NCBI GenBank assembly: GCA_013397455.1
Contig: VYZB01000134.1
Coordinates: 1,936,715 to 2,000,714, forward strand
Direction: 5' to 3'
DNA: 64,000 bases
Source: Crotophaga sulcirostris
Lineage: Eukaryota; Chordata; Aves; Cuculiformes; Crotophagidae
Shown here: positions 3,428-37,990 of the stretch, piece by piece
How positions within the stretch are numbered: the first letter of the stretch is position 1
Layout: every line of letters starts with the position of its first letter
Program-made: the position numbers and the translations under genes
The notes under the pieces: generated by a model
Seen by the model: only the letters and a program-made list of their open reading frames with translations
Database searches by the model: none
Told to the model about the DNA's origin: nothing

Positions 3428-26980
<23,553 letters not shown>

Positions 26981-35620: not shown

Positions 35621-35905
35621 TCACAGAATCGTTTGAAGGGACCTTAAAGCCCACCCAGTCCCACCCCCCTGCCACGGACAGGGACCCCTCCCACCAGCCC
35701 AGGCTGCTCCAGGCCCCATCCAACCTGGCCTTGGGCACCTCCAGGGAAGGGGCACCCACAGCTGCCCTGGGCATCCTGTGCCAGGGCCTCGCCACTCTTG
35801 CTGTAAAAACCTTCTTCTTAATATCTAATCTAAATGTCCTCTCTTTCAGCTTAAAGCCGTTACCACTCATCCTGTCTCTGCACTCCCTGATAAAGACCCT
35901 TTTAC
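35621..35905 (-). repeat. CR1 LINE fragment, left of MED18 block
   Basis: TCACAGAATCGTTTGAAGGG through CAGGCTGCTCCAGGCCCCAT and CTCTGCACTCCCTGATAAAG. It is closely similar to the copies at 37559 and 63052. The 5' limit is approximate. Confidence 0.92.
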
Positions 35906-36255: not shown

Positions 36256-36261
36256 TTTATT
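36256..36261 (-). terminator. MED18: Candidate MED18 poly(A) signal
   Basis: TTTATT on the + strand reads AATAAA on the gene strand, about 92 nt after the MED18 stop. No A-run follows it on the gene strand, so there is no sign of a retroposed poly(A) tail at this place. Confidence 0.4.
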
Positions 36262-36352
36262 CCCCTTGCTCTGCTTTGATTTCCCGTTAAAAAAAAGCTT
36301 TTTATAAAAAACACACTGTAAAAAAGGAAAAGGCCGGTTTCCGGCTTCTCCA

Positions 36353-36899
36353 TCACATCAGCCTTTTGGGGTCGATTTTCTCCAGGTGCACCAGAGGCTT
36401 CAGCTGCTCAGCAAAGTTCCTCATGTCGTCGGAGACGACGTCCTGCCCCGCCGGTGCCACCACGCTGAGCTCCACCAGGTAGGAGAGCGAGAGGGGCTCG
36501 ATGCTCTCCGTGTTGCCCGGCACCAGGATGCGGAACACCTTGTACACCACCACCTTCATGACGCCCTTGCGGAACACGTGCCCCTTGGCCACGAACTCGT
36601 GGTCCATGCGGAAGCCCATCTCCACCAGGAAGTCGGTCAGGTTCTCCGAGGTGGCGATGTCCACGCAGTGCCGCACCAGCGCGTGGCGGCTCTTGTCGCC
36701 GATCTCGGGCTGCCCCAGGTAGCGCAGGTGCCACGGCGCCCCGGCGCGGCCCAGCGACCGCCGCGCGCGCAGCACGAAGGGGCTGGCCTGCTGCCCCTTC
36801 AGCAGGAACACCAGCTCGTGGTCCACGAACGCCTCGGGCTCCACGTTGTCGCACAGCCCGCGCAGGCGGTGCAGGAGGCTCTCCAGGCTCTGGTCCAGG
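36353..36899 (-). CDS. MED18: MED18, Mediator complex subunit 18, C-terminal 181 residues (5' end in assembly gap)
   Basis: MED18 is a head-module subunit of Mediator, which links transcription factors to RNA polymerase II. The open frame begins LDQSLESLLHRLRGLCDN at the edge of the N gap and ends LVHLEKIDPKRLM with a TGA stop at 36353-36355. It matches human MED18 (208 residues) from about residue 28 to the end with no gap, frameshift or internal stop. Stretches such as GQQASPFVLRARRS and ATSENLTDFL are family hallmarks. The sequence is much richer in G+C, especially at third codon positions, than CERT1 or HMGCR beside it. The first 27 or so codons and the promoter are missing. MED18 is not between CERT1 and HMGCR in human. 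Whether this is a functional gene, a retrocopy or a misplaced contig cannot be decided here. Confidence 0.9.
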
Positions 36900-37558
36900 N
36901 NNNNNNNNNNNNNNNNNNNNNNNNNNNNNNNNNNNNNNNNNNNNNNNNNNNNNNNNNNNNNNNNNNNNNNNNNNNNNNNNNNNNNNNNNNNNNNNNNNNN
37001 NNNNNNNNNNNNNNNNNNNNNNNNNNNNNNNNNNNNNNNNNNNNNNNNNNNNNNNNNNNNNNNNNNNNNNNNNNNNNNNNNNNNNNNNNNNNNNNNNNNN
37101 NNNNNNNNNNNNNNNNNNNNNNNNNNNNNNNNNNNNNNNNNNNNNNNNNNNNNNNNNNNNNNNNNNNNNNNNNNNNNNNNNNNNNNNNNNNNNNNNNNNN
37201 NNNNNNNNNNNNNNNNNNNNNNNNNNNNNNNNNNNNNNNNNNNNNNNNNNNNNNNNNNNNNNNNNNNNNNNNNNNNNNNNNNNNNNNNNNNNNNNNNNNN
37301 NNNNNNNNNNNNNNNNNNNNNNNNNNNNNNNNNNNNNNNNNNNNNNNNNNNNNNNNNNNNNNNNNNNNNNNNNNNNNNNNNNNNNNNNNNNNNNNNNNNN
37401 NNNNNNNNNNNNNNNNNNNNNNNNNNNNNNNNNNNNNNNNNNNNNNNNNNNNNNNNNNNNNNNNNNNNNNNNNNNNNNNNNNNNNNNNNNNNNNNNNNNN
37501 NNNNNNNNNNNNNNNNNNNNNNNNNNNNNNNNNNNNNNNNNNNNNNNNNNNNNNNNNN
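36900..37558. other. Assembly gap (659 N)
   Basis: A run of N replaces the sequence between the MED18 coding block and a CR1 element. It hides the start of MED18, any intron, its promoter and the 3' end of the CR1. Its true length is unknown. Confidence 1.
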
Positions 37559-37990
37559 GCTCCAGGCCCCATCCAGCCTGGCCTTGGACACCTCCAGGGA
37601 GGGGGCACCCACAGCTTCCCTGGGCAACCTGTGCCAGGGCCTCACCGCCCTCACAATAAAAAAATTCTTTCTGATATCTAGGCTGAATCTCCCCCCCCTT
37701 TCAGCTTAAAACCGTTACCCCTTGTCCTGTCCGTGCACTTCCTGATAAAGAGCCCCTCCCCAGCTTTCCTGCAACCCCTTCAGGTACTGGAAGGCCGCTA
37801 TGAGGTCTCCCCGGAGCCTTCTGCTCTCCAGGCTGAACACCCCCAGCTCTCTCAGCCTGCCCTCACAGCAGAGGCGCTCCAGCCCTCTGACCAGGTTGGT
37901 GGCCTCCTCTGGACCACACTCAGACAGATCCATGTCCTTCCTGTGCTGAGGACTCCAGAGCTGGATGCAGTGCTCCAGGTGGGGACCCAA
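37559..37990 (-). repeat. CR1 LINE fragment, right of the gap
   Basis: Starts inside the element (GCTCCAGGCCCCATCCAGCC), so its 3' end is in the N gap. It continues through TATGAGGTCTCCCCGGAGCC to about TGCTCCAGGTGGGGACC. Confidence 0.92.

What the first reader, a model, noticed from the sequence alone, without database searches (positions are those of the whole stretch)
36353..36899. MED18 coding block between CERT1 and HMGCR
Seen: an unbroken frame for the last 181 residues of MED18 sits antisense in the CERT1-HMGCR interval. Known: CERT1 and HMGCR are direct neighbours in human, and human MED18 is on another chromosome (1p35). The block is far richer in G+C than either neighbour gene, as if it came from a different compartment such as a GC-rich microchromosome. 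Explanations: a recent duplicated or translocated gene, a retrocopy, or a contig placed wrongly.
Basis: partly seen in the sequence, partly recalled or inferred. Interest (0 to 1): 0.75.

Follow-up and report, generated by a model that had tools for sequence, protein, structure and literature searches.

The report
Z-linked MED18, the native bird copy
This is most likely the bird's ordinary single copy of the MED18 gene, sitting where birds have kept it since an old move to the Z chromosome; what is unusual is that in this bird it is extremely GC-rich and differs from other birds at about five times as many protein positions as its two neighbour genes do.

Summary
The block is real. Window 36898..36350 (minus strand) encodes residues 28-208 of MED18 in one open frame with its own stop, between the 3' ends of CERT1 (+) and HMGCR (-). 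It is not a visible second copy: the own assembly shows one MED18. A retrocopy is unlikely: four bird-like proteins read through what looks like a short intron. Misplacement is unlikely: no N separates the block from CERT1. The less expected part is composition: GC3 0.967, and 17 of 181 residues differ from the bird consensus, none requiring GC-to-AT change. HMGCR and CERT1 in the same window differ at 16 of 860 and 7 of 492, with GC3 0.40 and 0.37. GC-biased gene conversion beside a promoter CpG island is my best explanation; it is inferred, not shown.

The parts
36350..36898 (-). MED18 last coding exon, residues 28-208 plus stop TGA
36256..36261 (-). AATAAA, likely poly(A) signal of MED18, about 90 nt after the stop; no poly(A) tract follows
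   Evidence: read by eye; use not tested
36900..37558 (.). assembly gap (659 N) where MED18 exon 1, the short intron and the promoter should lie
   Evidence: expectation from bird proteins
35706..35899 (.). CR1-like repeat on the 3' side of MED18 (name recalled, no repeat library searched)
   Evidence: direct repeats of 37559-37692 and 37693-37754, 84%
37559..37754 (.). CR1-like repeat on the 5' side, abutting the gap (name recalled)
3428..26977 (+). CERT1 exons (from about residue 117 of P0242 to the C-terminus)
   Evidence: tblastn of P0242
45825..59788 (-). HMGCR coding exons
   Evidence: tblastn of P0124; PF00368 in the own genome

Best explanation
This is the bird's native and, as far as assembled, only MED18 gene, encoding a subunit of the Mediator complex. 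By the time of the common ancestor of chicken and killdeer the gene had left the block that holds RCC1 and moved, as DNA with its intron, into the interval between the convergent ends of CERT1 and HMGCR on what is now the Z (position shown here; history partly shown, partly inferred). In this lineage it then took up many AT-to-GC substitutions, most likely because meiotic recombination in birds, which lack PRDM9, settles at CpG islands such as promoters, and repair of mismatches favours G and C. The promoter would lie in the gap; GC3 is 1.00 from residue 28 to 174 and lower beyond. The conversion step is inferred; I put it at about 0.5-0.6. The confidence below is for the native-gene reading.
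For: One MED18 in the own assembly, by protein and by family. Chicken med18 on the Z (passage in PMC3880147). Charadrius MED18 P0076 and HMGCR P0144 both on a contig of 7,141,784 bases; it is the only bird with both genes in the two capped lists of 120. In the five non-birds that I found with contig lengths in both lists (Rhineura, Bombina, Leptodactylus fuscus, Ambystoma, Ascaphus) the lengths differ. Zosterops P0001 and the unnamed bird-like P0006, P0007, P0008 run MEAPPV...LLQG, then 49-63 extra residues, then SVLDQ, as a retained intron would. No N between CERT1 and MED18. For conversion: 17 of 181 residues differ from the bird consensus, 15 AT-to-GC on every shortest path, 2 ambiguous, 0 reverse. 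Neighbours: HMGCR 16 of 860, CERT1 7 of 492; rate difference p 6e-7. All 6 A/T-ending codons lie at residues 175-205. Recombination is enriched at CpG islands in zebra finch and flycatcher, and G/C was transmitted at 59% in both (passages in PMC12047795 and PMC4878770).
Against: Columba MED18 (contig 4,899,519) and Columba Col4a3bp (7,557,448) are on contigs of different length, and no bird CERT1 contig equals a bird MED18 contig; whether the Columba pair is one assembly is unknown. P0012, P0014 and P0028 show no insert between LLQG and S(V/I)LDQ: spliced models or RNA, or intronless. The free MED18 tree places the window with Tachyglossus, outside the birds (82/95, not starred), though birds plus window are not rejected (p 0.41), nor a group of the window with the non-galliform birds (p 0.39). 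At 6 of the 17 sites the window has the commonest mammalian residue. The controls also lean AT-to-GC, so the excess in direction is weak (15:0 against 13:5, p 0.049; against HMGCR alone p 0.028). No DNA of other birds at this locus was available, and the gap hides exon 1.
Confidence: 0.85

Rival explanations
1. An old second MED18 lineage (a diverged paralogue or a W-linked gametologue) sits here, and the ordinary bird MED18 is missing from this assembly.
For: The window protein is at most 92% identical to any row of the tree, carries mammal-like residues at 6 of 17 sites, and falls outside the birds in the free tree. GC-rich bird genes are often lost from assemblies (recalled).
Against: Only one MED18 and one HMGCR found in the assembly. 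The neighbours show ordinary bird divergence. The window keeps I93 (15 of 15 birds, 0 of 10 mammals, 0 of 6 squamates) and E158 (13 of 15, 1 of 10, 0 of 6). Charadrius has the consensus type on the HMGCR contig. Some of the same changes occur in other birds: 52 and 79 in Zosterops, 79 and 97 in Scytalopus, 172 in Apaloderma.
Confidence: 0.07
2. A retrocopy of MED18 inserted between CERT1 and HMGCR.
For: Only the last exon is visible, and the gap hides any intron. Three bird or bird-like proteins lack the insert (P0012, P0014, P0028).
Against: Four bird-like proteins read through an apparent intron after codon 25. No poly(A) tract follows the gene. No parent copy was found in the assembly.
Confidence: 0.03
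3. A scaffolding or contamination error.
For: A gap abuts the block, and similar CR1-like repeats lie on both sides.
Against: No N lies between the block and CERT1. The protein has bird-type residues at sites 93 and 158. Two lines put MED18 on the Z or on the HMGCR contig in other birds.
Confidence: 0.04
4. The native gene, but its fast change was driven by positive selection on the protein (an alternative to the conversion step only, so its odds overlap with the native-gene odds).
For: 17 changes in an otherwise conserved subunit.
Against: None of the changes requires GC-to-AT and third positions are saturated as well. 16 of the 17 residues occur in other MED18 proteins among the 120 examined.
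Confidence: 0.12

Closest known systems
Chicken MED18 on the Z chromosome (one sentence in PMC3880147, read as a passage)
   Same: MED18 separated from the RCC1 block and on the Z
   Different: the passage gives neither neighbours nor composition. PMC3880147 was the only paper listed for MED18 with Z chromosome and chicken, Z-linked, avian and sex chromosome, or birds and GC content; four papers with MED18 and HMGCR were not opened; none held HMGCR, Z chromosome, chicken and COL4A3BP together
Mammalian MED18 (PDB chains 8t1i_M, 7emf_R; P0018, P0019)
   Same: residues 28-208 align end to end without gaps
   Different: 161 and 160 of 181 residues identical in P0018 and P0019; in human the gene is on 1p35 (from the finding)
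GC-biased gene conversion at CpG-island recombination sites of birds (PMC12047795, PMC4878770, passages)
   Same: AT-to-GC change, GC3 highest toward the 5' end of the gene, next to a presumed promoter
   Different: recombination here was not measured; the extent in one conserved gene is unusual (judgement)
DNA-based transposition between bird sex chromosomes (Z to W in birds-of-paradise, PMC7692361, passages)
   Same: gene movement as DNA with introns
   Different: there a multi-gene piece from Z to W; here a single gene into the Z, much older

Membership tests
MED18 (Mediator subunit) | Med18 domain over the curated cut-off | tested here: met
   144.9 bits against 21
MED18 (Mediator subunit) | N-terminal residues 1-27 | not testable with these tools
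   would lie inside the gap 36900-37558
Native orthologue, not a duplicate | only copy in the genome | tested here: met
   1 match by protein and 1 by family in the own assembly; unassembled sequence not covered
Native orthologue, not a duplicate | same neighbours in other birds | tested here: inconclusive
Processed retrocopy | introns lost | tested here: inconclusive
   hidden here by the gap; apparently kept in four bird-like homologues, not seen in three others
Processed retrocopy | 3' poly(A) tract | tested here: not met
   none after the AATAAA at 36261-36256 (read); an old tract could have decayed
GC-biased gene conversion site | excess of AT-to-GC substitutions | tested here: met
   15 strict, 2 ambiguous, 0 reverse; only marginal against the controls
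GC-biased gene conversion site | high local recombination or biased transmission | not testable with these tools
   needs population or pedigree data

The most novel reading that the evidence does not exclude
After moving to the Z, MED18 became a lasting promoter-centred gene conversion site. In this lineage conversion has overridden purifying selection in a core Mediator subunit, replacing about 9% of the visible residues, none against the GC direction, while the two genes next to it stayed ordinary. Some of the same sites are drifting the same way in other birds.
Probability: 0.5. Interest if true: 0.5.

Novelty: new member of a known kind. Interest (0 to 1): 0.3.

Why it matters
The location itself is an old avian gene move, already noted for chicken. 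If the composition reading holds, this is a local case in which biased repair, rather than selection, changes a conserved transcription protein, with two ordinary genes in the same window as controls. It also warns that fast change in GC-rich bird genes need not mean adaptation or paralogy.

Tried and rejected
A recent duplication was rejected after the own-genome searches found one MED18. Mammalian contamination was considered because 6 sites match mammals; rejected because at 8 sites (30, 36, 93, 119, 135, 158, 160, 162) the window has the bird residue against the commonest mammalian one. Tree placement gave no starred branch.

The ancestral site was looked for through sestrin (PF04636), a recalled human neighbour of MED18: three sestrin genes, on C678, C738 and C1335. 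I took the compact one on C1335 for SESN2 by its size; that is unproven. I fetched 70,000 of the 230,546 bases of C1335 (10,816 of them N at the far end, and a 205-base gap); tblastn with 4 MED18 proteins found no MED18 there, best E 0.075. Among 10 ORFs scanned, only a FOXO gene was recognised, so the old neighbourhood was not identified, and whether MED18 left a trace there is open.

Searches for TAF12 (PF03847), RPEL (PF02755) and the flanking DNA in the own genome did not complete. The CERT1 protein search gave no bird contig length equal to one in the MED18 list; the one bird species that I found in both, Columba, differed. The promoter/terminator scan uses bacterial patterns and told nothing. 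A term search in one W-chromosome paper, PMC7599627, found none of HMGCR, CERT1, COL4A3BP and MED18. Rows chosen: one search used 21 of the 120 MED18 proteins as birds and left out P0107, a bird-like partial; one search used 15 of those 21, leaving out Apaloderma, Geospiza, Charadrius, Pygoscelis, Columba and Scytalopus, which are partial or odd; one search used 30 of the 120. The HMGCR control used 31 bird proteins and the CERT1 control 6.

Full report
Observation. The minus strand at 36898..36350 carries an open frame of 181 codons and a TGA. It matches Pfam Med18 at 144.9 bits and residues 28-208 of solved MED18 without gaps. Its 5' end is the edge of the window's only gap, 36900-37558. CERT1 exons lie on the plus strand within 3428-26977 and HMGCR exons on the minus strand within 59788-45825, so MED18 sits between two convergent 3' ends. 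CR1-like repeats (my naming; no repeat library was searched) lie on both sides in the same orientation, 84% alike.

Copy number. A protein search of the own assembly (1,058,157,671 bases, 1548 contigs) gave one match at E up to 0.001, the window itself. A family search with PF09637 at E up to 10 gave the same single place. HMGCR gave seven exon matches, all in this gene. So no second MED18 was found in what is assembled; unassembled GC-rich sequence cannot be excluded.

Age of the position. [quoted passage not shown] passages only). In the protein lists, Charadrius MED18 (P0076) and Charadrius HMGCR (P0144) share a contig length of 7,141,784, which I take as one contig. The Ficedula MED18 contig is 59,856,998 bases, about the size that I recall for its Z. 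Against this, Columba MED18 and Col4a3bp are on contigs of different length, perhaps from different assemblies; Leptosomus shows that this happens, its HMGCR being on a 25,676-base contig and its CERT1 on one of 94,217,628. In five non-birds that I found with contig lengths in both lists (Rhineura, Bombina, Leptodactylus fuscus, Ambystoma, Ascaphus) the MED18 and HMGCR lengths differ, while CERT1 and HMGCR share one in Ambystoma, Pyxicephalus and the bird Prinia. The lists are capped at 120 rows and collapsed at 90% identity, so most birds are not seen in them. The simplest history is a move of MED18 into the CERT1-HMGCR interval on the bird lineage.

DNA or RNA move. Zosterops P0001 and the unnamed, bird-like P0006, P0007 and P0008 begin MEAPPV...LLQG and continue for 49, 63, 53 and 55 extra residues before SVLDQ, which is what a retained in-frame intron of 147-189 bp would give. 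P0012, P0014 and P0028 lack the insert, as spliced models, RNA or an intronless gene would. Downstream of the window gene an AATAAA at 36261-36256 is followed by ordinary sequence, not a poly(A) tract. The window's own intron is hidden by the gap, so the DNA move is an inference from relatives.

Assembly. The sequence from the start of the window to 36899 has no N, so MED18 and CERT1 lie on one ungapped stretch. Only the link to HMGCR crosses the gap.

Composition and rate. MED18 has GC3 0.967; all six A/T-ending codons lie at residues 175-205, so GC3 is 1.00 over residues 28-174. GC is 0.37 in the 100 bases after the stop codon. Against the consensus of 21 rows that I took as birds (14 named, 7 unnamed; six cover only 141-161 residues), 17 of 181 residues differ; 15 are AT-to-GC on every shortest path, 2 ambiguous, none the reverse. 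The 21 rows themselves deviate by 0 to 10: Apaloderma 10 (mostly GC-to-AT by my reading of the codon table), Geospiza 9 and Pygoscelis 8 (both partly through what look like mispredicted starts), Scytalopus 6, Cyanistes 5, Zosterops 3, the other fifteen 0 to 2. In the same window HMGCR differs at 16 of 860 (8 AT-to-GC, 4 reverse, 4 ambiguous; GC3 0.40) and CERT1 at 7 of 492 (5, 1 and 1; GC3 0.37). A few control differences lie at exon edges and may be alignment error. The rate is 9.4% against 1.7% (17 of 181, 23 of 1352), about 5.5-fold, p 6e-7; the difference in direction is marginal (15:0 against 13:5, p 0.049). Of the 17 residues, 16 occur in other MED18 proteins among the 120 examined, invertebrates included; only H104 does not.

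Reading. Passages of two papers say that birds lack PRDM9, that recombination events are enriched at CpG islands, and that G/C alleles were passed on at 59% in zebra finch and in flycatcher (PMC12047795, PMC4878770). A short gene whose last exon starts near its promoter would be exposed along most of its length, with decay toward the 3' end, as seen. Positive selection or an old paralogue remain possible. The free tree puts the window outside the birds with weak support, but a place among birds is not rejected, and some of the same changes in other birds (52, 79, 97, 172) favour convergence.

Verdict. The gene and its place look ordinary for a bird as far as could be tested. The GC-biased burst is the part worth a second look.

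Noticed in passing
P0244, P0253, P0281, P0285, P0293: Several birds list a 'ceramide transfer protein-like' on contigs of about 24-37 Mb, smaller than the Z-sized ones; possibly W-linked CERT1 gametologues.
   Followed up: no
P0150 and P0196, Numenius arquata HMGCR: Two HMGCR proteins on contigs of 85.6 and 35.8 Mb; the second may be a W-linked copy.
   Followed up: no
P0028 Apaloderma MED18: Ten changes from the bird consensus, five of them losses of arginine, plus two extra residues, on a 12,680-base contig; may be a decaying copy.
   Followed up: no
P0129 and P0130, Tinamus guttatus HMGCR: Two HMGCR proteins on contigs of the same length, 85,101 bases, in a tinamou.
   Followed up: no
window HMGCR, P0124 residue 455: Of the 45 rows compared only Strix and Bubo share the window's cysteine here (Otus, also an owl, does not), and Strix is the closest by count (14 of 798 differ); the bird may be near owls, but the margin is small.
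   Followed up: partly
G000:C1335:134981-138148 and 153133-154368 (L015-L017): A compact sestrin gene about 15 kb from a FOXO gene in the own genome.
   Followed up: partly
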